Shown here: positions 29,956-46,979 of the stretch, piece after piece
Layout: each line of letters starts with the position of its first letter
How positions within the stretch are numbered: the first letter of the stretch is position 1
Assembly: GCA_002840565.1 (NCBI GenBank)
Contig: PHBK01000026.1
Span: 1-64,000 of the forward strand
Origin: Deltaproteobacteria bacterium HGW-Deltaproteobacteria-12
GTDB lineage: Bacteria > Desulfobacterota > Syntrophia > Syntrophales > Smithellaceae
Direction: 5' to 3'
DNA: 64,000 bases
The notes under the pieces: generated by a model
What the model was told of the DNA's origin: nothing
The model's input: only the letters and a program-made list of their open reading frames with translations
Databases searched by the model: none
Made by a program: the position numbers and the translations under genes

Positions 29956-29990
29956 AAGGAGGCTGTCCACAAAAACAGCCTCCTTATTTA
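29956..29990 (+). terminator. intrinsic terminator before the NtrB-like gene
   Basis: AAGGAGGCTGT and ACAGCCTCCTT pair over 11 bp with an 8-base loop, followed by ATTTAAT. It probably ends the porin transcript. From here to 30249 there is no gene that I can support; TTGACG-N17-TATTCC near 30140-30170 is a weak promoter candidate for the kinase gene. Confidence 0.65.
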
Positions 29991-30249
29991 ATCTCTATTC
30001 TTCAAAAAGATTTCTAAATCATATTTTAATGAAAGCTCGCATTAACCGGTCACGGGATGATTTGTTTCTGTTCAGATAAGTAAATGAGATTAAGTGGCAT
30101 TCCATGTAACATGCAGGTGTACATTTGGGTCGTTAGACTTGACGCGGAAATATTTTTGGAGTATTCCTTTAACGCTATTTATTACCTTACATTTATATTT
30201 CTGCACTCGGATATAAAGGTAAATATCAGAATAGACTTTTGAGACATTT

Positions 30250-31917
30250 ATGGCATCGAATAAAGAGCTTTTAAAAAAAAATAATCATCTGAAAGACGAA
30301 CTAGAGAAAAAAGGACTGATGTTGTCCTCGATCTTTAGAATCAATCAGTTGCTGAATCGCACTACCAATCGCGAAAAGGTTCTTCAGGCAATTCTGGATG
30401 AGTCTCATAGAATATTTGGTCTTACACGGTCTTTGATTTTATTGATCAATAAGGCAGAAAACAAGCTGGAAGCCAAGTATTGCATCGGTTTTTCACCCAT
30501 AGAGGAGAAAGTAGCCTTTACCCAGCCTCTCTGCATGAAGACCCAAATATGTCTGGAAACAATAGTCGCGAAGACTGGGAAGCTTATCTATATTAGCGAC
30601 ATTAAAAATGATTCCACCATATTAACTGAATTTGACCGGAGGAAGGAAAAATTCTGGAATAGGGTTTCTTATATCGCCGCCCCGCTGAAGATTAACCGTG
30701 AAATCATAGGTGTTATTGAAGGAGACAGAATCACCCAGAAGTTGGCTCTTTCCAAAAGCGATATGAAATTGTTTCAATCCTTTGCCAATCAGGCTAGCAT
30801 CATTCTGGAAAACGCCCGTTTATTTGAGCAGATCGTGGCAGAAAGGAGATTCACGGAAAATATCCTGGAGAATGTGCCGGCTGGGATATTAACCGTAGAT
30901 AAGTCCAAGAGAATCAATTCGATCAACCGGATGGCGGAGGAGATCCTAAAAAAGAAAAGGCGGAGAGTTTTAGGAAAGCCCTTTTCCCAAATCTTAGAAG
31001 ATGACTTTGTCAATATGCTGAATGACAACATCGATAATCATAACACGCCAAAACATATTGAGGTTGTGAAAAAGGAAAAGAATGGCAGGAAGAAAGTTTA
31101 TGGAGTAACTTCGTCACTCTTGAATAATTTATCTGGTATTGACACAGGTGCAATCATGGTGAGCCATGACGTGACAGATCTCAAGCAGACTGAGGCCATG
31201 TTGTGGCGCTGTGAACAACTCCAATCTCTTGGTCGAATGTCTGCCAGTATCGCCCATGAAATCAGAAATCCATTGGCAAGCATTAACTTCAATGTTCAAC
31301 TCCTGTCCAAAAAAATAATCTACAACAAGGAGATGCAGCGTATATCGAACAACGTTCTGGAAGGGATCGATAGAATCAAAACGACCATCAAACGAACCCT
31401 GGATTTTTCCAAGGATCTTAAGCCATTAATGTCATATGGATACATCTATGATGTCATAGCAGACTCCATTTCTCTCATTGCACCACAACTGAAAACTCAA
31501 TCGATAGAAATAAAAACTGATCTTTGCGCAGGCATCCCCAAATTATTATATGACCATCACCAGCTGCGAACTGTTTTTGTGAATCTGCTGATTAATGCTG
31601 CAGAAGCAATGCCCAAAGGAGGCACTATACTAGTCCAGGGCAGGATAGAGGGGGAAAAGATTTTTTCCGGTGCCAAGTGGCTCCAAATGACTGTAAAGGA
31701 TGATGGGATAGGTATCCCTAAGGAAACTGTTAAAATGGTTTTTGATCCTTTTTTTACGACTAAAAAAGAAGGAACAGGACTGGGTTTATCCATCGTCTGT
31801 AAAATTCTGGAACATCATAACGCATTAATCGAAATCAGGAGCAGGCAGGGCAGAGGCACCGCTGTCCATATAAAATTTCCGTTAATTAAAGGAAGTAACG
31901 GCAATGGCACGTTATAA
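30250..31917 (+). CDS. NtrB-like sensor histidine kinase (GAF-PAS)
   Basis: Cytoplasmic kinase of 555 residues. A short coiled coil leads to a GAF domain (about 30-185), then a PAS domain (about 195-310), a HisKA domain with the phospho-His in SIAHEIRNPLASI (about 335), and an HATPase domain with NLLINAAEAMP, DDGIGIP and GTGLGLSI. There are no membrane segments, so the GAF or PAS domain reads an internal signal, possibly a catabolic acyl-CoA or aromatic. It overlaps the sigma-54 activator gene by 14 bases, making them a cognate pair. Confidence 0.92.
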   Translation: MASNKELLKKNNHLKDELEKKGLMLSSIFRINQLLNRTTNREKVLQAILDESHRIFGLTRSLILLINKAENKLEAKYCIGFSPIEEKVAFTQPLCMKTQICLETIVAKTGKLIYISDIKNDSTILTEFDRRKEKFWNRVSYIAAPLKINREIIGVIEGDRITQKLALSKSDMKLFQSFANQASIILENARLFEQIVAERRFTENILENVPAGILTVDKSKRINSINRMAEEILKKKRRRVLGKPFSQILEDDFVNMLNDNIDNHNTPKHIEVVKKEKNGRKKVYGVTSSLLNNLSGIDTGAIMVSHDVTDLKQTEAMLWRCEQLQSLGRMSASIAHEIRNPLASINFNVQLLSKKIIYNKEMQRISNNVLEGIDRIKTTIKRTLDFSKDLKPLMSYGYIYDVIADSISLIAPQLKTQSIEIKTDLCAGIPKLLYDHHQLRTVFVNLLINAAEAMPKGGTILVQGRIEGEKIFSGAKWLQMTVKDDGIGIPKETVKMVFDPFFTTKKEGTGLGLSIVCKILEHHNALIEIRSRQGRGTAVHIKFPLIKGSNGNGTL

Positions 31918-33274
31918 AATTCTAATCATTGATGACGATAATCTTTTGACAGAATCTATTAAAGATGTCTTGGCGGATAAGTACGATATAATGATTGCCG
32001 GCACGGGTGAAGAAGCCATCAAGATATTGAAAAAAAACCGTTCAGACCTGGCTCTCCTGGATATAATGCTTCCTGGCATTGACGGCATTGAAACGCTCAG
32101 ATTGATTCGTAAGCTTAACATTGATGTGGAGGTAATTATGATGACCGCCCATGAAGACGTCAAATCGGTCATTACCGCCATGAAAATGGGAGCTTTTCAT
32201 TATCTTGTCAAGCCCCTTGATATTGATGAACTGGAAGTGAATATGGAAAAGGCGCTGGAGAATTTGAAGCTGAAACGGGAGCTCAGTGAGATTCGCAGCC
32301 AGAGAGCTTTGGAATTCGATATTAGTAACATCATTGCTCAGAGCTCGGGAATGGTTGCCGCAATGAAAATAGCCAGAACTGTTTCTCAAAGCTACGATAC
32401 GACGGCTATTCTGGAGGGTGAAACCGGAACCGGCAAAGAAGTAATAGCCAAGGTGATACACTATGGAAGTGATCGATGTGAGAAGCCATTTATCAGTATT
32501 AATTGCGGCGCCATAAGCAAAGACTTGGCAGAGAGCGAGCTTTTTGGCTATGAAAAGGGAACATTTACCGGTGGGCTCCAGAGCGGAAAGAAGGGTAAAT
32601 GTGAGATGGCGGACCACGGGACTTTATTCCTCGATGAAATAACCGAATTATTGCCTTCCGCTCAGGTCAAACTCCTGCGGTTCATGGAGGAGCGCGAGTT
32701 TTATAGAGTGGGAGGTACAGAAAAAATTAAAGTAGATGTTCGAGTTATCGCTGCTACGAATCAATCGCTGGAAGAAGCGGTCAGCAAGAAAACTTTTCGG
32801 GAAGATCTTTATTATCGTTTAAACATAGCCAGGATCTTTTTGCCGCCTTTACGGGATCGCAGCGAGGACATAATACCCCTGGCCATGTCCTTCATGAGAC
32901 AGTTGAATGAAAAATTTGGAAAACAGTTTAAAACCATATCGCCGGATGCCAAAAAAATCTTTCTGAATTATCAATGGCCGGGCAATGTACGCGAATTGCG
33001 TAATACGATTGAACGAGTTCTGCTTGTTGAAATGGACAGCCAAATAACGGCGGAGCATCTCCGGTTTTTAAAGAAAACGGCCCCTGTGTTATCGACTCAT
33101 CACGCAGAGAGTAATCAAGTAATGGAGAGTGGCATTCGTTTAAATGAAAATATCGAGAATCTTATCAGGGAGGCCTTGCTGAAATCCGCCGGAAATAAAA
33201 CACTTGCCGCTAAATCGCTGGGTATTACCAGATCACAGCTTCTCTATCGAATCAAGAAAATATCTAATAAATAG
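31904..33274 (+). CDS. NtrC-family sigma-54-dependent response regulator
   Basis: Activates sigma-54 promoters after phosphorylation. The 456-residue protein has a receiver domain with Asp53 in LLDIMLPG, a AAA+ domain (about 145-370) with Walker A GETGTGKE, the sigma-54 contact loop GTFTGG, and Walker B LFLDEI. A C-terminal Fis-type helix-turn-helix holds NKTLAAKSLGITRSQLLYRI. The contact loop differs from the usual GAFTGA at positions 2 and 6 but keeps the essential Phe and Thr. It sits between the three sigma-54 promoters at 19783, 33523 and 35706, which are its natural targets. Confidence 0.93.
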   Translation: MARYKILIIDDDNLLTESIKDVLADKYDIMIAGTGEEAIKILKKNRSDLALLDIMLPGIDGIETLRLIRKLNIDVEVIMMTAHEDVKSVITAMKMGAFHYLVKPLDIDELEVNMEKALENLKLKRELSEIRSQRALEFDISNIIAQSSGMVAAMKIARTVSQSYDTTAILEGETGTGKEVIAKVIHYGSDRCEKPFISINCGAISKDLAESELFGYEKGTFTGGLQSGKKGKCEMADHGTLFLDEITELLPSAQVKLLRFMEEREFYRVGGTEKIKVDVRVIAATNQSLEEAVSKKTFREDLYYRLNIARIFLPPLRDRSEDIIPLAMSFMRQLNEKFGKQFKTISPDAKKIFLNYQWPGNVRELRNTIERVLLVEMDSQITAEHLRFLKKTAPVLSTHHAESNQVMESGIRLNENIENLIREALLKSAGNKTLAAKSLGITRSQLLYRIKKISNK

Positions 33275-33522
33275 AATCAGGTAGGTTGAAAAGGGAAAAA
33301 ATTCTCTGACCACATTATTCAATGAATGAATTTATACAATAATGCATAATTGCCCTCCGTGCATCTAAGCTTCTGATATAATGTCGTTATTTTTATAGCG
33401 CAATCCATTTTTGATTCAATAAACCTGCTAATAATGAATAATATTATTCAGTGCGATGGAAAAAATAAACAGCTTTGATGGAAAAGTATTGTGATTCAGC
33501 GACTTAAGGCGTTAATTCGATG

Positions 33523-33538
33523 TGGCATGTTTAATGCT
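33523..33538 (+). promoter_or_regulatory. sigma-54 promoter upstream of the GldA-like gene
   Basis: TGGCATGTTTAATGCT has GG and GC spaced correctly for -24/-12, 42 bases before the ATG at 33580. It is almost identical to the promoter at 35706 (TGGCATGTTTAGTGCA). The AT-rich 305-base gap (33275-33579) also contains repeated TTCAATGAATGAA-like and ATCATTCAATAAT motifs that may be activator sites. Confidence 0.75.
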
Positions 33539-33579
33539 AATAGTATCATTCAATAATAAAACGGAAGGAGGAAACAGCA

Positions 33580-34680
33580 ATGGCGAGGGTATTGATATCA
33601 CCGGTTAAATATATCCAGGGAGAAGGGGAGCTAACTAAAATAAAGGACCATATTTCGCATTTGGGGAATACTTTTTTTTTCATTGCCGGTTCCAATGCTA
33701 TGGCAAGCACGAAAAACATCATTGAAGAAAGCTTCAAGGATAGCAGTGCAAAATTAGTGTTTGAGAAATTTCACGGTGAATCTTCCCGCTCTGAAATAAG
33801 CAGGTTAAAAGAAATTTACAATGCAAATAAATGTGATGTGGTGGTGGGGGTAGGTGGCGGTAAAGCGCTCGATACCGCTAAGGGAGTTGTCTACTATGTA
33901 AATTGTCCCTTGGTTATAGTACCGACCATTGCCTCTACAGATGCACCTACCAGTTCACTGGCCGTTCTTTATACCGATCAGGGTATCTGGGACGGGTGGG
34001 TTGCGCTTCCCAGAAATCCGGAAATTGTTCTGGCTGATACGAGAATTATTATCAACTCGCCTATGCGATTTTTTATTGCCGGGATGGGAGATGCTTTAGG
34101 TACGTATTTTGAAGCAATGGCCAATGTCAAATCCGATAAATTGAATTTCGCAGGCGGCAAAATAACTAAAACAGCGATGGGTATTGCCAAGCTCTGCTAT
34201 GATGTACTAATGGAAAATGGCGTAAAAGCCAAAGCGGCAATAGAAAACAAGATTGTAAATGATGCTGTGGAAAATGTGGTGGAGGCAAACATATATTTAA
34301 GTGGCGTGGGTTTTGAGAGTACCGGTTGTGCTTGTGCCCACGCAATTTATAACGGTTTTACTGCCCTTTCTGATCATCATAAAAACTGGCATGGAGAGTA
34401 TGTCGCATTCGGTACTCTGGTACAGGTAATTCTGGAAAACAGTCCCCTGCGTGATGAGGTATTAAAGTTCTGTGTGGATGTCGGGCTTCCTGTTACATTA
34501 AAAGATCTTGGCTATGAAAATATTAGTAATGAAGATCTGATGAAAGTTGCAGAAACAGCCTGTGCAGAAGGTGGATTTATGCAGAATGAACCATTTGTCA
34601 TCGATAAAAAGATGACCTATGACGCGATCTTGGCAGCGAATGCTTTAGGATATAAATATAAAGCTAATAAAGCACTCTAA
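33580..34680 (+). CDS. glycerol-dehydrogenase-like iron-containing alcohol dehydrogenase family protein
   Basis: NAD-dependent alcohol or polyol dehydrogenase. The 366-residue length equals that of bacterial GldA. It shares GldA landmarks: SPVKYIQGEGEL at the N-terminus, GVGGGKALDTAKG for NAD, PTIASTDAPTSSLAVLYT, and the metal ligands Asp in GMGDALGTYFEA, His in CAHAIYNG and His in NWHGEYVAFG. It starts behind AAGGAGG and a sigma-54 promoter, and is followed by a KduD-like dehydrogenase. GldA relatives oxidise vicinal diols, so a diol or hydroxyketone of alicyclic ring metabolism is a plausible substrate; glycerol itself is equally possible. Confidence 0.85.
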   Translation: MARVLISPVKYIQGEGELTKIKDHISHLGNTFFFIAGSNAMASTKNIIEESFKDSSAKLVFEKFHGESSRSEISRLKEIYNANKCDVVVGVGGGKALDTAKGVVYYVNCPLVIVPTIASTDAPTSSLAVLYTDQGIWDGWVALPRNPEIVLADTRIIINSPMRFFIAGMGDALGTYFEAMANVKSDKLNFAGGKITKTAMGIAKLCYDVLMENGVKAKAAIENKIVNDAVENVVEANIYLSGVGFESTGCACAHAIYNGFTALSDHHKNWHGEYVAFGTLVQVILENSPLRDEVLKFCVDVGLPVTLKDLGYENISNEDLMKVAETACAEGGFMQNEPFVIDKKMTYDAILAANALGYKYKANKAL

Positions 34681-34741
34681 TATAAATCGATACAAGGGTA
34701 GATGTAACCGAAAGACAATAAATCAGGTGAGGTGGATTGTG

Positions 34742-35500
34742 ATGAACATGTTTGATTTGACCGGGAAGAAGGCAATAGTGACCGGGGGCGCCAGCGGTTT
34801 AGGCAGAGGTTTGGTAGAAGGATTACACGAAGCGGGCGCTGAGGTGGCGATTATTGATATAACTGACCAGGTTGATGCAGTAGCCAATGAAATTTGTAAA
34901 TCCGGTGCGAAAGCTTTTGGCGTAAAAGGCAATTTAAGGGATAGAGAACAGTTGAGACAGGCGTTTCAAGCAGCAGTAGCTAAACTTGGTGATACTGTGG
35001 ATATTCTTGTAAATTGCGCAGGCATTCAAAGACGGAATCCTTGTTTGGATTTTACCGCACAAGATTGGGACGATGTAATTGAAGTTAACTTAACGGCGAC
35101 ATTTTTATTAAGTCAGCTTGCCGGGAAAATCATGGCGAAAAAGAATAAGGGAAAGATTATCAATATCGCTTCAGTGCTCAGTACTTTTGGCGGTTATACT
35201 GTTCCTGCTTATGCCTCTACCAAAGGTGGTGTAGCGCAATTAACAAAGGCATTTTCCAATGAACTGTCGTCCATTGGAATAAATGTTAATGCAATAGCCC
35301 CGGGTTATATGGCCACCCCTTTAAACACTGCACTTATTGAAGATAAAGAAAGAAACGCTAAAATATTGGCACGAATTCCTGCTGCCCGCTGGGGGACCCC
35401 GGATGATATGAAAGGTCTGGTCGTCTTTCTTGCATCCGACGCCTCTAATTATGTCAATGGCGCTATAATTCCGGTCGATGGCGGATATCTGGGCTGCTGA
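34742..35500 (+). CDS. SDR-family oxidoreductase (KduD / gluconate 5-dehydrogenase-like)
   Basis: Classical short-chain dehydrogenase of 252 residues with the cofactor motif TGGASGLGRG, NCAG, the catalytic Ser in IASVLS and the YASTK motif (Tyr-x3-Lys), then APGYMATPLN and a C-terminal VDGGYLG. The run of motifs (RWGTPDDM, ASDASNYVNGA) resembles KduD. The ATG at 34742 follows AGGTGAGGTGG; the in-frame GTG at 34727 is less suited. It is paired with the GldA-like enzyme in a two-gene sigma-54 operon, suggesting successive oxidation of two hydroxyl groups on one substrate. Confidence 0.85.
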   Translation: MNMFDLTGKKAIVTGGASGLGRGLVEGLHEAGAEVAIIDITDQVDAVANEICKSGAKAFGVKGNLRDREQLRQAFQAAVAKLGDTVDILVNCAGIQRRNPCLDFTAQDWDDVIEVNLTATFLLSQLAGKIMAKKNKGKIINIASVLSTFGGYTVPAYASTKGGVAQLTKAFSNELSSIGINVNAIAPGYMATPLNTALIEDKERNAKILARIPAARWGTPDDMKGLVVFLASDASNYVNGAIIPVDGGYLGC

Positions 35501-35565
35501 TGGACAAAATTGTAGAAACTTATGCAAAAATGGATAATTTCAAACAGGGTCCATATTTAAAATAA
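35500..35565 (+). CDS. possible 21-residue coupled peptide
   Basis: The SDR stop overlaps an ATG (TGATG) that opens a 21-codon frame, MDKIVETYAKMDNFKQGPYLK. Such overlap is typical of translational coupling, so it could be a real peptide or the stub of a lost third gene of the operon. No further gene lies between 35566 and the sigma-54 promoter at 35706. Confidence 0.2.
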   Translation: MDKIVETYAKMDNFKQGPYLK

Positions 35566-35705
35566 TAAGCAATATCAGGTACATGACGTCCGGCTTTTTT
35601 GGCAAGGGCACATAGTGAATAAATAACATATTGAATGAATGATAAACGTGAGCAAGAGTTTCTGAAATACTAAAATATTCAATGGCTTATAATGGGAATT
35701 CATTT

Positions 35706-35721
35706 TGGCATGTTTAGTGCA
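35706..35721 (+). promoter_or_regulatory. sigma-54 promoter upstream of the NuoG/E/F-like and hydroxylase operon
   Basis: TGGCATGTTTAGTGCA has the -24 GG and -12 GC 12 bases apart and matches the promoter at 33523 in 14 of 16 positions. Initiation near 35731 would give a leader of under 20 bases to the ATG at 35749. A GAATGAATGAT motif near 35632, related to motifs in the 33.3 kb gap, is a candidate activator site. Confidence 0.75.
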
Positions 35722-35748
35722 ATCGCCTAATGAACATATAAGGAATGC

Positions 35749-36438
35749 ATGTTTAGTAAACAAAGCGAAAATACATTGATGGGGAATGTTATGAAGCAAA
35801 TAAAGGTACAAATAAATGGCAAGGCAATAAGCGGTCATGAAGGGATGACCATCCTTGAAGCAGCAGATCAAGGGGGGATTCATATACCAACCCTATGTCA
35901 CAGACCAGAATTAACGCCCAGCGGTGTTTGCCGTGTCTGTGTGGTGGAGGTGAAAGGTGCCCCGCGCCTGGTGGCGTCCTGCCACACCCCCATAAGCGAG
36001 GGGATGGTTATCGTTACTAATTCGCAGCCTGTGATGGAAGCCAGAAGGGCTGTGGTGGAGCTGTTGCTGACCGGACACACCGGCTCATGTGTCGTTGATT
36101 CGGAAGCTCACAGCTGCGAACTTCATAAGCTGGCTGCGGAACTGGAAGTCGGACAGCCCCGATTTCAGGTGAAAAAACCGAGATTCTATCCGGTCGAAGA
36201 AGCAAATAAAAGTGTCAGGCGGGATATGTCGAAGTGCATTCTTTGCGGGCGTTGTGTAAGGGCTTGCCGGCAGATCGCAAAAAAGGACATTCTCGCCATA
36301 GCCTACAGGGGTTTTGCCACGAAGGTTGTGGTCGACTGTGACGGATCTCTTAATAAAAATGAGTGCATAGACTGTGGAGTGTGCATCGACTTTTGTCCCA
36401 CGAGTGCTCTGAACAAACCGGCCAAAGGAGTATTGTAA
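35749..36438 (+). CDS. NuoG/HoxU-like iron-sulfur electron-transfer subunit
   Basis: Electron-transfer subunit of a NADH-linked module. It has an N-terminal [2Fe-2S] domain (PTLCHRPELTPSGVCRVCVVEV, then SCHTP), a His-Cys cluster region (HTGSCVVDSEAHSCEL), and two C-terminal [4Fe-4S] motifs (CILCGRCVRAC and CIDCGVCIDFC). At 229 residues it equals the N-terminal part of NuoG/HoxU without the catalytic domain. The ATG at 35749 follows AAGGA; an ATG at 35791 gives the more usual family N-terminus and is equally plausible. It opens an operon with NuoE- and NuoF-like genes and a molybdenum hydroxylase. Confidence 0.88.
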   Translation: MFSKQSENTLMGNVMKQIKVQINGKAISGHEGMTILEAADQGGIHIPTLCHRPELTPSGVCRVCVVEVKGAPRLVASCHTPISEGMVIVTNSQPVMEARRAVVELLLTGHTGSCVVDSEAHSCELHKLAAELEVGQPRFQVKKPRFYPVEEANKSVRRDMSKCILCGRCVRACRQIAKKDILAIAYRGFATKVVVDCDGSLNKNECIDCGVCIDFCPTSALNKPAKGVL

Positions 36439-36439
36439 T

Positions 36440-36871
36440 ATGAGTGATAGCAAGCCAAACATGACGAGGGAAAGTCTTCTCTCAATGATTAGTGAAGAGC
36501 AATGCAAGCGCGGCTTCGTTTCTAATGAAGCCATTGTATCTATGGCACAGAAACTGGGGATCTCCGTAGGAGAAGTATACGGTGTCGTTACTTTTTATGC
36601 CTATTTCTCGCTGAAGCCGCAAGGCAAGCATATTATCCGGGTATGTAAAAGTGTGCCTTGTCATTTGAAGCAGTCTGAGATGGTGGTTTCCTGGATAAAG
36701 GCTCATCTCGGAATCGAACCCGGGCAAACAACGTCTGACGGCAGATTCTCCTTAGAACTGGCCAATTGTATAGGAGCCTGTGACCAGGCACCAGCCATGT
36801 TGATAGATGACGTGGTCTACGGGAATCTCACCCAGGCAAAGGTTGCCGAGATTCTGAAATCATCTGAATAA
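36440..36871 (+). CDS. NuoE-like [2Fe-2S] subunit
   Basis: The 143-residue thioredoxin-fold subunit passes electrons between the FMN subunit and other clusters. Ligand cysteines are in VCKSVPC and, after about 40 residues, NCIGACDQAP. VYGVVTFYAYFSLKP is a family signature. It starts one base after the NuoG-like stop, behind AAGGAG. With the genes on both sides it forms a soluble trimer like those of NAD-dependent hydrogenases and formate dehydrogenases, or the BamGHI subunits of class II benzoyl-CoA reductase. Confidence 0.92.
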   Translation: MSDSKPNMTRESLLSMISEEQCKRGFVSNEAIVSMAQKLGISVGEVYGVVTFYAYFSLKPQGKHIIRVCKSVPCHLKQSEMVVSWIKAHLGIEPGQTTSDGRFSLELANCIGACDQAPAMLIDDVVYGNLTQAKVAEILKSSE

Positions 36872-36889
36872 GCCAATGGAGGTTTGAGC

Positions 36890-38149
36890 GTGTCTATAAA
36901 AAGAATTTTAACCGAGAATTTTGGCAGTATCGATCCAAGTGATATCAATAGCTATAAAGCAAAGCAGGGTTTTAATGCTTGGCGAAAAGCCAGAGAAGAA
37001 ATGACCCCGGAAGCAGTGATCGAAGAAATAAAACAATCGGGCTTGAGGGGACGAGGCGGTGCTGGATTTCCCTGCGGCATTAAATGGGAGTTGGCCAGAA
37101 AGTCAAACGGAGACAGGAAATATCTCATCTGCAATGCTGATGAAGGCGAAGTTGGTACCTTCAAAGACAGGTATCTTATCGAAAACGATCCGTTCAGCCT
37201 CATCGAAGGGATGGCTATTGCAGCTTATGCCGTTGGTGCAAGCCATTCATTCATCTATCTTCGCACAGAATACCGCTATCTGCGGGATGTGTTGCAAAAT
37301 GCCATCGAGCAGGCCAAGCAGTCCGGATTTCTACAGGATCTGAGCATTGAGATCAGAGAAGGAGCAGGCGCCTACATTTGCGGCGAAGAATCGGCGCTGA
37401 TGAACTCTATCGAAGGCAAACGGGGAGACGCGAGGTTCCGCCCCCCCCTGCCTCCCGTCAGCGGGCTCTTTGGCATGCCGACGGTTATTAATAATGTGGA
37501 GACCTTTGCCAATGTGCCTTTGGTTATTCGCAACGGAGCCAGATGGTATAGCAAGATCGGCACTAAGGATAGCAAGGGAACCAAGTTGTTCTGTGTCAGC
37601 GGAGATGTTGATAGACCAGGCATCTATGAACTGGAACTGGGCAGCAGTCTTAAGCAACTGGTGATCGATCTGGCCGGGGCTAAAAACGTTAAGATGGTGC
37701 AAGTAGGTGGTTCCACCGGCAGGGTGATCCCTTTATCCGGAATTGACGTCCCCCTGGCCTACGAATCCGTTATGGGATCCGGAGCCGTTATCGTTTTTGA
37801 TCAAAGTCGGGACATCGTGGATTTCCTGCATCGGACAATGGAGTTCCTCAACGAAGAGTCATGCGGCCAGTGCACGCCTTGTCGGGAAGGAACAGAAGCA
37901 ATGATGGAAGTTTTGGGTCGATTGGTAAATGGTGAAGGGGTACAGGGTGACCTTGATGCGTTGGAAGAGCTGGCAGGGCCAATGAAGTTGGCTTCTCTTT
38001 GCGGCTTGGGGCAGGCGGCGCCGATCCCGGTGATCGATTGTCTGCAGCACTTCCGGGAAGAGTTCGAAGGCAGGGTCCGTTATTCGGTGTTTCTCAGAAG
38101 CCTGAAAACAATTCAAGCAGGAACTTCTGACGCTTCTAAAATTGTATGA
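36890..38149 (+). CDS. NuoF-like NADH-binding FMN/[4Fe-4S] subunit
   Basis: The NAD(H)-binding diaphorase subunit. It has the FMN/NADH glycine-rich SGLRGRGGAGFPCGIKW, NADEGEVGTFKDR, GAGAYICGEESALMNSIEG, and the [4Fe-4S] ligands in ESCGQCTPCREG plus a Cys about 40 residues later in SLCGLGQ. GTG at 36890 lies seven bases after GGAGG and gives 419 residues; a TTG at 36884 is too close to it. The protein lacks the long ferredoxin-like tails of HydB/NfnB types, so simple NAD(H) exchange with the hydroxylase is the likely role, not bifurcation. Confidence 0.92.
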   Translation: MSIKRILTENFGSIDPSDINSYKAKQGFNAWRKAREEMTPEAVIEEIKQSGLRGRGGAGFPCGIKWELARKSNGDRKYLICNADEGEVGTFKDRYLIENDPFSLIEGMAIAAYAVGASHSFIYLRTEYRYLRDVLQNAIEQAKQSGFLQDLSIEIREGAGAYICGEESALMNSIEGKRGDARFRPPLPPVSGLFGMPTVINNVETFANVPLVIRNGARWYSKIGTKDSKGTKLFCVSGDVDRPGIYELELGSSLKQLVIDLAGAKNVKMVQVGGSTGRVIPLSGIDVPLAYESVMGSGAVIVFDQSRDIVDFLHRTMEFLNEESCGQCTPCREGTEAMMEVLGRLVNGEGVQGDLDALEELAGPMKLASLCGLGQAAPIPVIDCLQHFREEFEGRVRYSVFLRSLKTIQAGTSDASKIV

Positions 38150-38162
38150 GAGGGAATAAGAT

Positions 38163-38765
38163 ATGAAAGAAGATAAAGCAAAGTTTCTGTGTCCTTATTG
38201 TGGGGACAAATTCGATAGTTATGAAATGCTTAAATCACATGCCGTTAAGGTGCACGCAGGGGAACCTGCTCCGTTACCGGAAGGAATGATCCGGCTTAAG
38301 ATAAATGGTAAAGACTTCAGGTTGCAAGTAGAGCCGGAATGGACACTGAACTTCCTGATTCATGATGTTATGGGGTTGACATCGCCAAAGATGTTTTGTG
38401 ATCGCGGCGCCTGCGGTTCGTGCACAGTGATCATGAACGGGCGGCCGATTTTGTCCTGTATGACATTGGCGATTGAATGCGATGGGAAATCAGTGCAAAC
38501 GGCGGAGGGTATTGCAGCCGAAAATCATCCCCTGATACCAGCCTACGTGGAACATCATGCCATGCAGTGTGGTTATTGCACACCTGGTTTTGTGACAACC
38601 GCGAAAGCCCTGCTGGATAAAAACCCGGAACCTTCTCTGCAACAAATACAAGAGGCGTTGGGTGGTAATCTTTGCAGGTGCGGTACTTATCCTCAGCATC
38701 CCAAGGCCATTATGCAGGCAGCTAAAGAACTTAAGGTGAAGGCGAAAGGGGGACACAATGGCTAG
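38163..38765 (+). CDS. molybdenum hydroxylase [2Fe-2S] subunit with N-terminal C2H2 zinc finger
   Basis: Small iron-sulfur subunit of a xanthine-oxidase-family enzyme, 200 residues. Residues 10-31 form a C2H2 finger: Cys10-X2-Cys13-X12-His26-X4-His31. From residue 42 the standard subunit follows. Cluster II ligands are Cys79, Cys84, Cys87 and Cys99 (plant-type ferredoxin fold). Cluster I ligands are Cys136, Cys139, Cys171 and Cys173 (CGYCTPGF and CRCGTYP). Family members such as HcrC, CoxS or NdhS begin directly with the ferredoxin domain, so the finger is extra. It overlaps the large-subunit gene by eight bases. Confidence 0.92.
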   Translation: MKEDKAKFLCPYCGDKFDSYEMLKSHAVKVHAGEPAPLPEGMIRLKINGKDFRLQVEPEWTLNFLIHDVMGLTSPKMFCDRGACGSCTVIMNGRPILSCMTLAIECDGKSVQTAEGIAAENHPLIPAYVEHHAMQCGYCTPGFVTTAKALLDKNPEPSLQQIQEALGGNLCRCGTYPQHPKAIMQAAKELKVKAKGGHNG

Positions 38766-41199
38766 CAGTGAAAAAGATAAAGCAAAAGAATTGCTTGATA
38801 ATTTGAGATTTGACAAATATCCGCTGCCCGAGGAAAGGCAAAAGAGTATTGGCAGCAGAACCGTCCGACGTTTGGATGGTGTTGAAAAAGCAAGCGGATA
38901 CGCGAATTACACAATGGATGTTCAGCTCCCGGGTATGCTTTATGCGCGATTTCTGACGTCACCCTATCCGCACGCGGCTATTAAAAGCATGGACTGCAGC
39001 AAGGCTGAAGCTTTGCCCGGCGTGAGGGCGATCCTCAGATACGATGATCCGGAAATACAGGTTAAAGAAGATTTAGGCGGGCACGGTGTCTCTCCAAAAT
39101 TACCTTTGCCCGGAGTGGCCCATTTTCAGGGGGAAGAGATAGGCGCGTTCGTTGCCGCCGATTCGGAAGAAATTGCGGATGAAGCTTTAAGACTGATTAA
39201 AATTGAGTGGGATGTGCGCCCGTTTGTCCTGACGGTAGAAGATGCCATGAAAGATGGTGCTCCTTTGGTCAATCCGGAGGAATTTCCAGAGAGCAATATA
39301 GAGGCGGTTCACGAGGCGGGACGCGGCAACGTTGAGCAGGGATTTAAAGAGTCCGATGTTGTTTTTGAATTTACTTCCCGAAAATTGCTGCACACCTATA
39401 TAAGCCCTGAACGTCCCTGCGGTGTTTGGCGTTGGAATGGTGAGTATCCGGAAGTATGGTGCAAGCAGCAACGCCCCCACATTGTAAAGAGGGCAATCGC
39501 TTCGTGGTTCGGAGGTATCCCCCATAACCGGATAGAACTCCATATTCTTTATCAAGGGGCAAGTTTCGGCGGATGGTCTCAATACGGCTGGAACCAGGGA
39601 GGTAATTACTGTGCGGCAGTTTTGTCAAGGCGAACCGGTAGACCGATCAAATGGTCTTTTACCCGGCGTGAGGATTTTTATGGTGGATCCATGGATGAGG
39701 GCATCTACCATTATAAAGTGGGGGCGAAGAAAGATGGCACCATCATGGCGGTCAGTGGGGAGGCGATTTATGCCAATCCCGCATGGGGTGGACAGGGTCC
39801 TGTTCTTCATCTGGAAGAATGCACCAAAATCCCTAACCTTTATGGCAAGAGAACACTTGTCTTCGTCAACAAAGGACCGAATACGGCGGTGCGCTGTGAG
39901 CAGCTTCCCAATACGCATACTCTGACATTAATACACGATCATGTTGCTTCTGAGCTGGGGCTTGATCCCATGGAGGTGGCACTGAAAAACGATGGTGTGC
40001 ACGGGCATGATATGGCGGAATGGGGCCGTAAAGCCAAGTTAGACCTTGGGTTTCCGGAGACAGATAGCCTCAGGGAGTGTATCAAAGCCGGTAAAAAATC
40101 GATCGATTGGGAAAAGAAATCGCATGCCCCGGGAACTAAGAAGCTGCCCAACGGCCGGATGCATGGAATAGGCTTCACTTGGAACCATGAATGGGAAGAT
40201 TCGGCAAGTTCATCTGAGATAGCCATGCGCCTGGAACGTAATGACGGAACCTTGAGAATTCTTGCCATGCGTTGTGATAATGGTGTCAATGCCGAAACAT
40301 CCTACTGTCAGGTAGCAGCAGATGAATTAGGCATGAAAATCGAAGATGTTTTCTTCAGACCTCAGACTGATGTTGGTTTTTTCACTGGAACACCCGATTC
40401 ATCCACCAACATGAGTGTCAATGGATTTGCTGTCAGGCATGCGGCGCGAATGTTAAGGGAAAAGATTTTAAAGGCGGCTGTCAGCCCTCGTGCGGTTACG
40501 CAGCGAGGTAGTTATCCCCCTTTCTTTCCTGATTGCAAACCAGAGGATCTGGATATTAAGGATAGCGTAATTTTTCTTAAAAAGGATCCTTCAAAAAAGT
40601 TGACACTGGCTGAGTTTGTGGGACCTTCCGGAGACCAGGGTGCGTTTGCTTTTTACGAACTTTACGGAACTGAAAGGACACCTTTTACTGAGCCGATGTT
40701 CACGCACAGTTACCACGTGCAGGTAGGCGCCTATAAAGGTGGCGTGAGGCCACGGTTTATCCGGCAATGCCATTTCATGGAAGTGGAAGTAGACACAGAA
40801 ACTGGTGAGATTATTGTGACAAAGGTTGTCAATGTAAATGATGTAGGTAAGGCGATAAACCCTATGGCCTGTGAAGGTCAGATGTATGGTGGTACCTACA
40901 TGGGAGTAGGACGGGCCCTTTGGGAAGAAATGATCCACGATCCGGCGACCGGCGTTTTGCTGAACGGAAATTTGTTGGATTATAAAATTGCGACAATTGA
41001 GGATTGCGGGCCGATAGATACTGTCTTGAAAGAATCCCGGTTGGGCTTTGGTCCTTACGGGTTAGTAGGTATCGGTGAAAATACTCCGACAATGATTCCA
41101 GCTTTACTGGGTCCTGCGGTGTTTAACGCTATAGGTGTCTGGATCGATGATTATCCGATCACGCCGGACAAGGTATTAAAAGCTTTGGGAAAGAGATAA
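38758..41199 (+). CDS. molybdenum hydroxylase large (molybdopterin) subunit, 4-hydroxybenzoyl-CoA reductase-like
   Basis: Catalytic Mo subunit of the xanthine oxidase family, 813 residues. Typical landmarks are VRRLDGVEKASGYANYTMD near residue 35, GASFGGWSQYG for the Mo-binding glycine loop, and the active-site base Glu774 in VGIGENTPT near the C-terminus. ERPCGVWRW and KRTLVFVNKGPNTAVRCEQ fit the molybdopterin domains. The FAD subunit in the same operon carries the extra [4Fe-4S] loop of 4-hydroxybenzoyl-CoA reductase, so reductive dehydroxylation of an aromatic CoA ester is the favoured reaction. An oxidative hydroxylation is the main alternative. Confidence 0.88.
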   Translation: MASSEKDKAKELLDNLRFDKYPLPEERQKSIGSRTVRRLDGVEKASGYANYTMDVQLPGMLYARFLTSPYPHAAIKSMDCSKAEALPGVRAILRYDDPEIQVKEDLGGHGVSPKLPLPGVAHFQGEEIGAFVAADSEEIADEALRLIKIEWDVRPFVLTVEDAMKDGAPLVNPEEFPESNIEAVHEAGRGNVEQGFKESDVVFEFTSRKLLHTYISPERPCGVWRWNGEYPEVWCKQQRPHIVKRAIASWFGGIPHNRIELHILYQGASFGGWSQYGWNQGGNYCAAVLSRRTGRPIKWSFTRREDFYGGSMDEGIYHYKVGAKKDGTIMAVSGEAIYANPAWGGQGPVLHLEECTKIPNLYGKRTLVFVNKGPNTAVRCEQLPNTHTLTLIHDHVASELGLDPMEVALKNDGVHGHDMAEWGRKAKLDLGFPETDSLRECIKAGKKSIDWEKKSHAPGTKKLPNGRMHGIGFTWNHEWEDSASSSEIAMRLERNDGTLRILAMRCDNGVNAETSYCQVAADELGMKIEDVFFRPQTDVGFFTGTPDSSTNMSVNGFAVRHAARMLREKILKAAVSPRAVTQRGSYPPFFPDCKPEDLDIKDSVIFLKKDPSKKLTLAEFVGPSGDQGAFAFYELYGTERTPFTEPMFTHSYHVQVGAYKGGVRPRFIRQCHFMEVEVDTETGEIIVTKVVNVNDVGKAINPMACEGQMYGGTYMGVGRALWEEMIHDPATGVLLNGNLLDYKIATIEDCGPIDTVLKESRLGFGPYGLVGIGENTPTMIPALLGPAVFNAIGVWIDDYPITPDKVLKALGKR

Positions 41200-41211
41200 G
41201 GAAGATTGAAT

Positions 41212-42189
41212 ATGAAAAAATTTGCACATTTTAATGCCAAGACTTTAGACGAAGCGGTTTCAATTCTCGAGCGCTACCGAGGCAAGGCGAATGTCATTGC
41301 CGGCGGGACGGATTTGCTGGGCCAGATGAAGGACCGGATTCTACCGAACAATCCGGAGGCCTTGGTGAACATCAAAAGCATTCCCGGACTTGATATAATC
41401 ACTGAGCAAGGCGGTTTCTTAAAAATAGGAACATTGGCTTTGTTGGAAGATATCGCCCACAATGCTGTCATTAAGAGCAAATACTCAGCCTTGGCTGAAG
41501 CCGCCCGCAGAACCGCTTCACCCCATATCAGGGAGATGGGTACGATCGGCGGCAACATATGCCAGGACATTCGATGCTGGTATTACCGAAACCCTGACAA
41601 CCGTTTCCCCTGCCTGCGAAAAGGCGGAGGAAGATGTTATGCCTTGGATGGTGACAAACGATACCACTCGATATTCGGGGGAAGCGTAAAAGAGGGATGT
41701 TTAGCAGTGCATCCGAGTGATACAGCACCGGCTTTGGTGTCATTAGGGGCCTACGTGCAAACCACAAAAAGAAAAATTCATATCGATGATTTTTTCCAGG
41801 TGGAGATTTCCAGAACTACTGTGTTGGATGATAAAGAAATCGTTACGGAGATTCAAATTCCTGAGCCGGCAAAGAACAGCAGGAGCGCCTTCCTGAAATA
41901 TGCCTTCAGAAAATCTATCGATTTTCCTATTGTTAATTGTGCCGTATCCGTTACCAGCGCAGGCGGGCAAGTGGAAAGTGCCAGAATATGTTTGAATGCC
42001 GTTTTCGTGAAACCGTATCGAGCAACGAAAGCTGAAGAGTACCTGATAGGGAAAAAAATAACCAAAGCAAATGCCGAACGCGCCGGTAAGGCTGCCGTAG
42101 ATGATGCCAAGTCATTTGAGGAAAATGATTATATGGTTAATGCAGCTAAAGCCCTTGTTACCAGAGCTGTTCTGTCCTGTGCGGAATAG
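41212..42189 (+). CDS. molybdenum hydroxylase FAD subunit with extra [4Fe-4S] loop (HcrB-like)
   Basis: FAD subunit of 325 residues. The FAD motifs are ANVIAGGTDLLGQMK and TIGGNICQDIRC. Between residues 120 and 165 an insertion holds Cys122, Cys134, Cys142 and Cys163, closely matching the spacing of the four ligands of the extra [4Fe-4S] cluster in HcrB of 4-hydroxybenzoyl-CoA reductase, which reverses the usual electron flow. The ATG at 41212 follows AAGGAAG; a TTG at 41206 is in frame. Its gene is last of the three hydroxylase genes and is followed by an ABC importer. Confidence 0.9.
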   Translation: MKKFAHFNAKTLDEAVSILERYRGKANVIAGGTDLLGQMKDRILPNNPEALVNIKSIPGLDIITEQGGFLKIGTLALLEDIAHNAVIKSKYSALAEAARRTASPHIREMGTIGGNICQDIRCWYYRNPDNRFPCLRKGGGRCYALDGDKRYHSIFGGSVKEGCLAVHPSDTAPALVSLGAYVQTTKRKIHIDDFFQVEISRTTVLDDKEIVTEIQIPEPAKNSRSAFLKYAFRKSIDFPIVNCAVSVTSAGGQVESARICLNAVFVKPYRATKAEEYLIGKKITKANAERAGKAAVDDAKSFEENDYMVNAAKALVTRAVLSCAE

Positions 42190-42197
42190 GATGTCAA

Positions 42198-43070
42198 ATG
42201 TATGATATTGGGATAATCAGTCAACAAATTTTAAATGGTCTCATTACGGGTAGCGGCTACATTCTGGTTGCTCTTGGGCTTACATTGATTTTCGGTGTCT
42301 ATCGTATAATCAATATGGCTCATGGTGCAGTTTATATGTGGGGCGCTTTTTTCTGTCAGATATTTGCGACCAGATTAGGGCTCAATTTTTATTTAGCTAC
42401 AATCATTGCCATGGTTCTGGCCGGATTTCTTTCCGTTTTCCTGGAAAGAATCGTGTTCCGAAAAGTGAAGGGTCAGGCCGACTGGGTGGCTTTGGTGGCA
42501 GGTTTGGGTATCTATTATACCCTGGAAAATTTGGGCTGGATCGTCTTGGGTCCCAGAGAGCTTCACGTTTTTGCCGATGCCGCCACACATACAGTCAGGT
42601 TCGCCGGTTTCTATGTTAACTTACAAAAATTGATTCTGGCAGCTATCTGCCTGGTCATAGTTGTGGGCATGGTAGTGGTACTCAAAAAGACCAGTGTGGG
42701 CCGCGCCATCCGGGCGGCAAGTTCAGATTCAGAAGCCGCCTTACTGGTGGGAATTAACACAAATCTTATATCCACGGTGGTCTTCTTTCTGGGCGGTGCC
42801 TTTGCCGCTGTTGCCGGTAGCTTGCTTGGGTCTCTTAGTTCGGTAGCGCCGGCTATGGGTTTTGCTCCAATGATCATGGCCTTTGTCATCGTTGTTTTTG
42901 GAGGCATGGGAAGTATTCTGGGTACAGTAATAGCCGGACTGATGGTTGGTGTAATTCAAAATCTCCTGGCTTATACCGTAGCTCCCAGCTTTGCTTATGC
43001 CTTCACGATGCTGATCCTGCTGGCCATTTTTATTGTAAAACCGACAGGTCTTTTTGGGGAGGTGAAGTGA
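42198..43070 (+). CDS. livH: branched-chain-type ABC transporter permease (LivH family)
   Basis: Inner-membrane permease of 290 residues with about eight hydrophobic segments. GSGYILVALGLTLIFGVYRIINMAHGAVYMWGAF is the family's N-terminal signature (spread over residues 13-46), and VVFGGMGSILGTVIAGL is the C-terminal coupling region. In catabolic clusters this family often imports aromatic or other carboxylates rather than Leu/Ile/Val. It starts 8 bases after the FAD subunit and overlaps livM by one base. Confidence 0.92.
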   Translation: MYDIGIISQQILNGLITGSGYILVALGLTLIFGVYRIINMAHGAVYMWGAFFCQIFATRLGLNFYLATIIAMVLAGFLSVFLERIVFRKVKGQADWVALVAGLGIYYTLENLGWIVLGPRELHVFADAATHTVRFAGFYVNLQKLILAAICLVIVVGMVVVLKKTSVGRAIRAASSDSEAALLVGINTNLISTVVFFLGGAFAAVAGSLLGSLSSVAPAMGFAPMIMAFVIVVFGGMGSILGTVIAGLMVGVIQNLLAYTVAPSFAYAFTMLILLAIFIVKPTGLFGEVK

Positions 43071-43999
43071 TGCCCAAAAAGAATTTTATAATCTTTGCAG
43101 TGCTGGTGATAATCTATGCCATTGTTCCGGTTATAGCACCGGAAAACATCGTTCATCTGATGGCCAGAACCGGTATCTGGATTATCGTAGCAGCGGGTTT
43201 GAATCTGCTTACCGGTTACATGGGATATGTATCATTCGGCAATGCCGCATTTGTGGGCATTGGATCCTATTGTGCCGCACTTATGGCAGAGCATTTAGGT
43301 TTTTCCTTCTGGATAGTCTTGATTATCGCTCCGATTCTGACTGCATTTGTCGGCCTTTTGTTGGGAAAGGCTCTACTCAGACTGTCAGGTATATATTTTT
43401 CGATCGGGACCCTTATTTTAGGAGAAATACTGTTTTCAGTCTATTACAACTGGACTCCGGTCACAGGCGGATTTATGGGCCTCAACGTAGAGGAGGTATC
43501 GGTTTTCGGCGTGCAATTCGGATTAATCCAGTGGTACTACTTAGTACATTTAACGTTACTGGTTGTTACAGTTGCTCTCTACTTTCTCGTTAAATCTCAG
43601 TTCGGCAAAGAACTTATAGCCATACGGGAAAATGAATCCCTGGCGGAATCCCTGGGAGTTGACGTTAAAATGAGAAAATCCCAGTGTTTTGCCTTGACCT
43701 GCCTTCTTGCGGGATTAGGTGGAGTGCTCTATGGGTATTACATGCGTCATATTGATCCTGGTTCCTTTGCCATGGCCGCTTCCACGGAATTCATAACAAT
43801 TGTTATTATTGGAGGTTTAGCCACCCTTCAAGGTCCATTCATCGGAGCGTATATACTCATTGCTTTGTCACTTTATCTCGAAGTGTTGGGTAGTTGGCGC
43901 ATGGTTATATATGGTTTGATCATTGTTTTGGTGATGCTCTATGCCAGGGGCGGGATTGCCGGAGCGTTTAAAACTATTTTAAAAAAAATCAGGACATAA
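43070..43999 (+). CDS. livM: branched-chain-type ABC transporter permease (LivM family)
   Basis: Second permease, 309 residues. Signatures are AAGLNLLTGYMGYVSFGNAAFVGIG at residues 45-69 in the N-terminal half and ENESLAESLGVDV with VIIGGLATLQGPFIGAY in the C-terminal half. About nine transmembrane segments. The ATG overlaps the livH stop (TGATG). It forms a heterodimeric channel with LivH. Confidence 0.92.
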   Translation: MPKKNFIIFAVLVIIYAIVPVIAPENIVHLMARTGIWIIVAAGLNLLTGYMGYVSFGNAAFVGIGSYCAALMAEHLGFSFWIVLIIAPILTAFVGLLLGKALLRLSGIYFSIGTLILGEILFSVYYNWTPVTGGFMGLNVEEVSVFGVQFGLIQWYYLVHLTLLVVTVALYFLVKSQFGKELIAIRENESLAESLGVDVKMRKSQCFALTCLLAGLGGVLYGYYMRHIDPGSFAMAASTEFITIVIIGGLATLQGPFIGAYILIALSLYLEVLGSWRMVIYGLIIVLVMLYARGGIAGAFKTILKKIRT

Positions 44000-44003
44000 A
44001 TAG

Positions 44004-44771
44004 ATGAATTTACTTAAAGCTGAAAATATTTCCAAATCGTTTGGTGGGCTTAAAGCAATAAATGATGTGTCTTTTGAAGTCAGGAAAGCGGAGATCCTTG
44101 CATTGATCGGACCGAATGGTGCCGGAAAAACCACTTTGCTCAACCTGATAACAAACTTTATTAAGCCCGACAAAGGGCATGTGGTTTTTTGCGATCAGAG
44201 CATTGACGGTAAACCGCGGCATACCATAGTCAAACTGGGCATAGCACGAACCTTTCAGACGCTTACTGTTTTTGAAAACCTTACGGCGGCAGATAACATA
44301 ATCATCGGTCACTCGGCCCGGACCGGTCTAGACCTCGGGAGCATCTGGAACGTAACTGCCTACCATAAGAAAAGACAAGAAAAGAAAGAAAGTTTTTCCA
44401 AAGTACTCTATGACTTAATAGAGTTTGTCAACTTAAATAAGAAGTACATAAATTGGCCGGTGAATGAGCTGTCAATCATCGATAAAAAAAGAGTGGCTAT
44501 TGCTTGTGCATTGGCCTCAGAGCCTAAATTATTGCTGTTGGATGAGCCTCTGGCCGGACTAAATCAGACCGAGGCACAGGAAATATTGGATTTAATGAGA
44601 AAGACAAAAGCAGCAGGTACTTCCATACTCCTAATAGACCATAATCTGGAAGCAGTTATGAGTGTGTCAGACAGGGTGATGGTTCTGAATTTTGGTGAAT
44701 TTGTCTGTGAAGGAACTCCTTCCGAGATTATCTGTCATAAAAAGGTTCGAGAAGTGTATTTAGGGGAATAA
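44004..44771 (+). CDS. livG: ABC transporter ATPase (LivG family)
   Basis: Cytoplasmic ATPase, 255 residues. Walker A is GPNGAGKTTLL and Walker B LLLLDEPLAGLN. LivG signatures include GIARTFQTLTVFENLT. The usual LSGGQ signature is altered to VNELSIIDKKRVAIA, so the C loop lacks the SGG core, which is unusual. It is followed two bases later by livF. Confidence 0.9.
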   Translation: MNLLKAENISKSFGGLKAINDVSFEVRKAEILALIGPNGAGKTTLLNLITNFIKPDKGHVVFCDQSIDGKPRHTIVKLGIARTFQTLTVFENLTAADNIIIGHSARTGLDLGSIWNVTAYHKKRQEKKESFSKVLYDLIEFVNLNKKYINWPVNELSIIDKKRVAIACALASEPKLLLLDEPLAGLNQTEAQEILDLMRKTKAAGTSILLIDHNLEAVMSVSDRVMVLNFGEFVCEGTPSEIICHKKVREVYLGE

Positions 44772-44773
44772 TC

Positions 44774-45478
44774 ATGTTGAGCGTAAAAAATCTTTCTATA
44801 AAATATGGACATACTGAGGTTCTGCACAATCTGAATCTGAATATTGAGAGAGGCGAGATCGTAACTTTGTTTGGTCCGAACGGATCAGGAAAGTCTACTC
44901 TATTGCGAAGCATTTGCGGGTTAATGCCAATCGCGAGCGGAGAGATCATCTTTGAAGATAAAAAATTAAAAGACTGCTCGACATCCGATATCGTGCGAAT
45001 GGGAATTTCCCAGGTTCCGGAAGGGCGCAGGGTCTTTTATGAAATGACGGTTCTGGAAAATCTTTTGGTAGGCGGTTATCTCCATAATAACAAAGAAAAT
45101 AATAAAAAACTGGACGAAGTGTTTAAAATATTTCCAAGATTGGAAGAAAGAGCAAAACAGAAAGGAGGGACTTTAAGCGGGGGAGAACAGTCTATGCTAG
45201 TTGTCGGCAGGGCTTTAATGAATAAACCAAAGTTACTTATCATGGATGAGCCTTGTTTGGGGTTGGCTCCGATTATTGTGAAAAATCTTGCGGAAACCAT
45301 AAAACGGGTAGTTCAAAGCGGCTTAACAGTACTGCTTGTAGAACAGAATTCCAAGTTTGCTTTGAGTTTAGCCATGCGCGGTTATGTTATCTCGAATGGG
45401 AAAATCGTCGCAGAAGGGACAACTGAGAACTTGATGTCTAGGGAAGAAGAAATAAGAAAGGCGTATTTGGGTGCTTGA
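44774..45478 (+). CDS. livF: ABC transporter ATPase (LivF family)
   Basis: Second ATPase, 234 residues. Walker A is GPNGSGKSTLL, the signature is GGTLSGGEQSMLVVGRAL and Walker B is LLIMDEPCLGLAP. ISQVPEGRRVFYEMTVLENL is the LivF family marker. It has a complete C loop, so with the altered LivG the pair may have one fully canonical ATP site. Confidence 0.93.
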   Translation: MLSVKNLSIKYGHTEVLHNLNLNIERGEIVTLFGPNGSGKSTLLRSICGLMPIASGEIIFEDKKLKDCSTSDIVRMGISQVPEGRRVFYEMTVLENLLVGGYLHNNKENNKKLDEVFKIFPRLEERAKQKGGTLSGGEQSMLVVGRALMNKPKLLIMDEPCLGLAPIIVKNLAETIKRVVQSGLTVLLVEQNSKFALSLAMRGYVISNGKIVAEGTTENLMSREEEIRKAYLGA

Positions 45479-45573
45479 GGAAGATGAATTAAGATTGTGC
45501 AACTTATCTTTTCATCAAGCGGCGCGTTTAATTGCTTAAACATGAAACCAAAGGAAATTGAAAGGAGCAATGT

Positions 45574-46947: not shown

Positions 46948-46979
46948 CTATAAGATTAGTTAGTGTTATATTGGAAATT

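What the first reader, a model, noticed from the sequence alone, without database searches (positions are those of the whole stretch)
38163..38765. C2H2 zinc finger fused to a molybdenum hydroxylase iron-sulfur subunit
Residues 10-31 form a textbook C2H2 finger (Cys10-X2-Cys13-X12-His26-X4-His31) placed before an otherwise complete [2Fe-2S] subunit with all eight cluster ligands. Known XO-family small subunits start directly with the ferredoxin domain. The finger could dock the NADH module or a maturation factor, or bind nucleic acid. It is in frame, shares the gene's start signal, and there is no sign of frameshift.
Basis: partly seen in the sequence, partly recalled or inferred. Interest (0 to 1): 0.68.

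Follow-up and report, generated by a model that had tools for sequence, protein, structure and literature searches.

The report
Zinc-fingered subunit of a molybdenum enzyme
The small iron-sulfur subunit of a molybdenum enzyme in this anaerobic bacterium really does begin with a zinc finger, and the same finger turns up in a rare, apparently undescribed branch of this enzyme family spread over several bacterial phyla, where it most likely works as a clip that holds the enzyme's protein parts together.

Summary
ORF 38163-38765 (200 aa) is a complete xanthine-oxidase-family [2Fe-2S] small subunit with all eight cluster cysteines, preceded by a classical C2H2 finger (C10-X2-C13-X12-H26-X4-H31). 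It is the only zf-C2H2_4 match in the 4-Mb genome, and AlphaFold2 gives it a confident beta-beta-alpha fold. It is not a one-off: it marks one rare, discrete subfamily found in Desulfobacterota, Chloroflexota, Bacillota, Acidobacteriota and others. C10, C13 and H31 are invariant in 55 of 55 aligned members (chosen for having the finger), H26 in 53. In the window's branch (group A) all 20 loci with enough sequence upstream sit behind NuoG-, NuoE- and NuoF-like genes; none of 22 finger-less small subunits do. A second branch (group B) keeps the finger without NuoGEF: most have a GltD-like NAD(P)H module inserted in the FAD subunit, but a few Tat-type members have neither. Docking to an NADH module is therefore plausible for group A but not a general explanation; nucleic-acid binding is unlikely (neutral to acidic finger). 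Best reading: a structural zinc knob for protein docking within the oxidoreductase complex. No earlier description was found in the held literature. Zinc binding and docking remain untested.

The parts
38163..38765 (+). MoS: XO-family [2Fe-2S] small subunit with N-terminal C2H2 finger, 200 aa
38184..38255 (+). C2H2 finger, residues 8-31; ligand codons C10 38190-38192, C13 38199-38201, H26 38238-38240, H31 38253-38255
   Evidence: Pfam zf-C2H2_4, genome scan, AlphaFold2, ligand conservation
38256..38285 (+). Linker, residues 32-41; in group A P37 and G41 are each 29 of 30
38289..38711 (+). Two-domain [2Fe-2S] part (residues 43-183): Fer2-type domain then Fer2_2, eight cluster cysteines
35749..36438 (+). 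NuoG/HoxU-like subunit, 229 aa (Fer2_4, NADH-G_4Fe-4S_3, Fer4 domains)
36440..36871 (+). NuoE-like subunit
36884..38149 (+). NuoF-like subunit (FMN/NADH), 421 aa; matches bifurcating-type HydB subunits but starts near their residue 104-151 and its match ends at residue 398-400, so it lacks their N- and C-terminal domains
38758..41199 (+). MoL: molybdopterin-binding large subunit; best PDB match 4-hydroxybenzoyl-CoA reductase alpha
41206..42189 (+). FAD-binding medium subunit with a cysteine-rich loop as in aldehyde oxidase 5y6q_B and 4-hydroxybenzoyl-CoA reductase beta
48882..51672 (+). Cofactor maturation genes: MocA-type cytidylyltransferase (48882-49556), MoeA-like (49578-50597, by reading), XdhC-family factor (50668-51672)
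   Evidence: for the first and last; (translation read by eye) for MoeA-like
19565..56133 (.). About 36.5 kb block carrying the operon, absent at the same site in a same-genus genome (G003)

Best explanation
MoS is the [2Fe-2S] subunit of an XO-family molybdenum enzyme, in a subfamily marked by a structural zinc finger at the N-terminus. Shown: the finger exists, its ligands are under strong selection, and in this branch it travels with a NuoG-E-F-like diaphorase encoded just upstream. Inferred: the finger binds one Zn(II) and is a small rigid protein-docking knob next to the N-terminal, plant-ferredoxin-type domain of MoS, helping to hold the MoS-MoL-FAD core to its electron-transfer partner, so that electrons pass between NAD(H), FMN, the NuoG-like clusters, the MoS clusters and molybdenum. 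In the other branch the same knob would contact a different surface, such as a GltD-like module on the FAD subunit or an assembly factor.
For: Ligands C10, C13, H31 55/55 and H26 53/55 while most other finger positions vary; ligand codons change only synonymously among 28 group A genes (TGT/TGC, CAT/CAC). Confident bba model in both branches (finger blocks at pLDDT 90-93; 96-97). All 20 group A loci with at least 5 kb upstream have NuoG, NuoE and NuoF; 0 of 22 finger-less small subunits do. Two near relatives without NuoGEF, L059 and L061, also lack the finger. Finger net charge averages -0.5 (group A) and -1.1 (group B), which suits a protein contact better than a nucleic-acid contact. MoS lies 13 nt after NuoF and overlaps MoL by 8 nt, one tight operon. 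A zinc site that may act as a hinge is known in a NuoF homologue, HydB of HydABC (PMC9499530); the window NuoF lacks that C-terminal part.
Against: The finger is not tied to one partner: 21 fingered loci with enough sequence upstream have no NuoGEF (15 with a GltD-like insert, 6 without one seen), and at least one Tat-type member keeps an intact finger with a plain FAD subunit (L151). L044/L045 keep NuoGEF although H26 is replaced. Association was counted over related loci, so the Fisher value (4e-4) overstates independence. No complex model could be run, and no metal binding is shown.
Confidence: 0.5

Rival explanations
1. The finger is a handle for a maturation or quality-control factor (XdhC-type chaperone, Fe-S or sulfur donor, or Tat proofreading factor) that acts before the subunits assemble.
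For: It is kept across members with different electron partners, including Tat-type ones that would be assembled before export. The window's block carries MocA- and XdhC-type maturation genes.
Against: Finger-less relatives in other genomes manage without it; no maturation gene was tested for co-occurrence with the finger; in the group A branch the finger follows NuoGEF.
Confidence: 0.22
2. The finger is a purely internal structural cap: it packs on MoS itself or on MoL/FAD, stabilising the core heterotrimer or its dimer, and has nothing to do with the electron partner.
For: The common factor of all fingered members is MoS-MoL-FAD, not NuoGEF or GltD. The finger is predicted with high confidence in the monomer.
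Against: Does not explain why the finger is missing in L059 and L061, which lack NuoGEF but keep MoL and FAD.
Confidence: 0.22
3. The finger binds nucleic acid, making the subunit a moonlighting regulator of its own operon.
For: C2H2 finger similar in sequence to DNA-binding fingers in the PDB.
Against: Single finger, neutral to acidic, present also in proteins with Tat signals, and the window's block has a sensor kinase and sigma-54-type regulator of its own (translations of 30250-33274, read by eye).
Confidence: 0.04
4. Artefact: a chance fusion, wrong start or frameshift.
For: None found.
Against: Same architecture in dozens of other genomes with well-placed starts; ligands invariant with synonymous codon changes.
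Confidence: 0.01

Closest known systems
XO-family (molybdenum hydroxylase) small subunits, e.g. CoxS/CutS, HcrC, NdhS, PaoA
   Same: Fer2 + Fer2_2 architecture, eight cysteine ligands, partner large and FAD subunits; AlphaFold model overlays 1n62_D, 3hrd_H, 1rm6_C
   Different: None of the matched solved XO-family chains covers the N-terminal finger
4-hydroxybenzoyl-CoA reductase (HcrABC)
   Same: Best PDB match of MoL and second best for the FAD subunit
   Different: All three subunits score far below the NCBIfam equivalog cut-offs; paired with NuoGEF-like genes; finger
NAD-dependent modular enzymes using NuoE/F/G-like diaphorases (HoxEFU hydrogenase, NAD-dependent formate dehydrogenase, HydABC)
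   Same: NuoF-, NuoE- and HoxU/NuoG-like subunits as a plug-on NADH module
   Different: Catalytic core is an XO-type molybdenum enzyme; NuoF lacks the HydB C-terminal domain that carries a Zn site in HydABC (PMC9499530)
Prokaryotic zinc fingers of the Ros/MucR family
   Same: Bacterial Cys2His2 zinc fingers; Cys-Asp-His2 variants occur in both (PMC5745721)
   Different: Ros87 is a 58-residue DNA-binding domain of bbbaa topology (PMC5745721); here a ~24-residue bba finger fused to an enzyme subunit

Membership tests
XO-family [2Fe-2S] small subunit | Fer2-type domain followed by Fer2_2 with 4 + 4 cysteine ligands | tested here: met
   Fer2_2 E 2.3e-26, eight cysteines invariant
XO-family [2Fe-2S] small subunit | Encoded with a molybdopterin large subunit and a FAD subunit | tested here: met
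   MoL at 38758, FAD at 41206
Classical C2H2 zinc finger | C-X2-C-X12-H-X3-5-H with hydrophobic core positions and bba fold | tested here: met
   spacing exact, F17 and L23 largely conserved, EE 8-9, EE 16-17, helix 20-31
Classical C2H2 zinc finger | Score over the curated Pfam cut-off | tested here: inconclusive
   24.2-26.1 bits against 27, full-length match to the 24-position model
Classical C2H2 zinc finger | Binds zinc | not testable with these tools
   needs ICP-MS or Co(II) spectroscopy
4-hydroxybenzoyl-CoA reductase | Equivalog cut-offs TIGR03193/03194/03195 | tested here: not met
   132.7/257.8, 307.8/994.55, 153.4/404.55 bits
NuoEFG-type NADH diaphorase module | Complex1_51K + NADH_4Fe-4S, thioredoxin-like 2Fe-2S, NuoG N-terminal Fe-S domains | tested here: met
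NuoEFG-type NADH diaphorase module | Physically part of the molybdenum enzyme complex | not testable with these tools
   only gene order and co-occurrence available
Ros/MucR regulators | ~58-residue DNA-binding zinc finger domain | tested here: not met
   finger of ~24 residues runs after a 10-residue linker into the [2Fe-2S] domain; no Ros/MucR family in the Pfam hits

The most novel reading that the evidence does not exclude
A conserved zinc finger is a general plug in an undescribed subfamily of molybdenum hydroxylases, letting the same kind of catalytic core be wired to exchangeable NAD(P)H modules: a NuoGEF diaphorase in one branch and a GltD-like module grafted into the FAD subunit in another.
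Probability: 0.25. Interest if true: 0.7.

Novelty: new variant of a known kind. Interest (0 to 1): 0.5.

Why it matters
C2H2 fingers are usually thought of as eukaryotic nucleic-acid binders; here one is kept across several bacterial phyla as a fixed part of a redox enzyme. It marks a testable subfamily of molybdenum hydroxylases, part of it wired to NADH modules, and it could show how anaerobes mix and match catalytic cores with electron-transfer modules.

Tried and rejected
Chance, wrong start or frameshift: rejected. Unique fusion in one genome: rejected by dozens of relatives. Finger as a general feature of XO small subunits: rejected; in 395 genomes of the phylum the group A subfamily stands apart in score (at least 330 bits; a mixed band at 247-261 bits; all others at most 201), and no small subunit fetched from 99 genomes of the same genus, family and order had it except the own one. 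Strict finger = NuoGEF rule: rejected by group B. Plasmid hits with apparently longer matches (L173, L174): no finger on reading. Published description: five searches aimed at a fingered or NuoEFG-linked molybdenum enzyme found none. Surveys of 299 and 301 genomes around a Bacillota and a Chloroflexota member found strong matches in 4 and 1 genomes, the starting genomes included. My own Tat regex also flagged several Bacillota rows that show no twin-arginine signal in the N-termini; those flags are not used.

Full report
What is there. The ORF at 38163-38765 (+) encodes 200 aa. Residues 8-31 match Pfam zf-C2H2_4 over its full length, and residues 43-183 are the two-domain [2Fe-2S] subunit of the xanthine-oxidase family. 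The finger has the classical spacing C-X2-C-X12-H-X4-H with a mostly conserved aromatic at 17 and leucine at 23. All eight cluster cysteines are present. The gene starts with a plausible ribosome site, 13 nt after the NuoF-like gene and overlapping the large-subunit gene by 8 nt.

More than chance. Across all six frames of the 4-Mb genome this is the only zf-C2H2_4 match (E 1.2e-4). AlphaFold2 predicts the beta-beta-alpha finger with blocks at pLDDT 90-93, and a group B relative gives the same fold with 96-97. Foldseek overlays the rest on known small subunits such as CO dehydrogenase and nicotinate dehydrogenase; those matches align about 150 columns, too few to include the finger.

Relatives. 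A scan of genome contigs returned 79 loci. The full N-termini show the finger in most of them, from bacteria labelled Desulfobacteraceae, Syntrophaceae, Dehalococcoidia, Oscillospiraceae, Acidobacteria, Spirochaetes and Sedimentisphaerales. In 55 aligned members picked for having the finger, C10, C13 and H31 are invariant and H26 is 53 of 55; the two exceptions, L044 and L045, have Asp at that position. Because these rows were chosen for having the motif, the fairer evidence is the spread of other positions against the fixed ligands, the purely synonymous codon changes at the ligands, and the phylum survey below. Some relatives have Asp in place of the second Cys (L060, L063, L066, L069, L106, L107). 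A Cys-Asp-His2 site binds zinc in a Ros87 mutant (PMC5745721), so these may still be working fingers. pN/pS over the finger is 0.38 against 0.17 over the Fe-S part, with pS near saturation in both.

How rare. In 395 genomes of the phylum, 212 have a match to the profile, but only 7 genomes hold group A members (8 loci, at least 330 bits, matched from model position 1-4). A second band at 247-261 bits, from three genomes, is mixed: six loci were fetched, three fingered (L150, L151, L152) and three finger-less (L147, L148, L149). All remaining matches are at or below 201 bits. No small subunit fetched from 99 genomes of the same genus, family and order has the finger except the own one. Other phyla are similarly sparse.

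Tree. A tree of the Fe-S part joins the fingered loci and a few finger-less ones in a supported clade of 75 rows (97/88), outside which lie five finger-less small subunits and then all the other XO small subunits sampled. The intact-finger label needs at least six changes on the tree; L059 and L061 are finger-less within or next to group A. The root is not established, so I do not claim when the finger was gained.

Neighbours. In group A every locus with at least 5 kb upstream (20 of 20, including L044 and L045 with the altered finger) has NuoG-, NuoE- and NuoF-like genes upstream, in order NuoG-E-F-MoS-MoL-FAD or with MoL before MoS; 0 of 22 finger-less small subunits have them. Fisher p = 4e-4 for intact finger against NuoGEF over 68 loci, but these are related sequences. 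Group B has the finger without NuoGEF: 15 of 21 have an inserted Fer4_20 + Pyr_redox_2 (GltD-like) module in the FAD subunit; L151 and L076 have a plain FAD subunit, and in the rest the FAD gene is cut or missing at a contig end. L070, L075, L151 and L152 have a Tat-like N-terminus and an intact finger; L066 has a Tat signal over Pfam's cut-off with the Asp variant. L059 and L061 have the GltD-like insert and no finger. So the finger is linked to NuoGEF within one branch but not across the subfamily.

Mechanism. Zinc binding and docking are inferred. The finger is neutral to acidic (mean net charge -0.5 and -1.1), single, and occurs also in proteins with Tat signals, so nucleic-acid binding is unlikely. 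A structural protein-contact knob fits best. For group A the likeliest contact is the NuoGEF-like module; for the subfamily as a whole, an internal or assembly contact is about as likely. I therefore give the docking reading 0.5 and the two main rivals 0.22 each. The reaction catalysed is unknown: the large subunit is nearest in the PDB to 4-hydroxybenzoyl-CoA reductase, but the NCBIfam cut-offs for that enzyme are not met.

Setting. The operon lies in a block of about 36.5 kb (19565-56133) with 2-hydroxyacyl-CoA-dehydratase/benzoyl-CoA-reductase-like genes and two activases, a thiolase, LivHMGFK-like transporter genes, MocA- and XdhC-type maturation genes, and what read as ModABC genes. At the same site a same-genus genome (G003) has the stretches matching window 18513-19564 and window 56133 onward separated by only 156 bp; no tRNA and no direct repeat of 12 bp or more marks the ends. 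The flanking gene at 62596-63465 is 86-92% identical in three same-genus genomes, so the contig belongs to this lineage.

Novelty. Searches of the held open-access library found no description of a zinc finger on a molybdenum hydroxylase subunit; subscription papers are mostly missing, so this is not proof of novelty.

Noticed in passing
window 19565-56133: A ~36.5 kb catabolic block, including this operon and its own molybdenum cofactor genes, is absent at the same site in a same-genus genome (G003), with no tRNA or direct repeat at the ends. Gain here or loss there is not settled.
   Followed up: partly
L103:12945-15284; L061:10406-12781: The FAD subunit carries a ~400-residue Fer4_20 + Pyr_redox_2 (GltD-like) module inserted inside FAD_binding_5, a fused NAD(P)H module.
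   Followed up: partly
L103:10569-12932; L066:10563-12953: Group B large subunits read GISH where group A reads GIGE near the C-terminus, so the position of the usual XO-family catalytic Glu appears changed; compared by eye only.
   Followed up: no
L060, L063, L066, L069, L106, L107: Finger variants with Asp in place of the second Cys, like the Cys-Asp-His2 sites of Ros/MucR relatives.
   Followed up: partly
L044:5418-6014; L045:9995-10591: Two NuoGEF-linked members have Asp in place of the first zinc His; in L045 a His sits one residue earlier. Whether they still bind metal is unknown.
   Followed up: no
L147, L148, L149: Finger-less small subunits 62-64% identical to the window's, from the three genomes that also hold fingered group B members.
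   Followed up: no
window 19972-24085: Two dehydratase/benzoyl-CoA-reductase-like subunits with two separate activases next to CoA-transferase and thiolase genes; they score below every benzoyl-CoA reductase equivalog cut-off, so the ring or acyl substrate is unknown.
   Followed up: no
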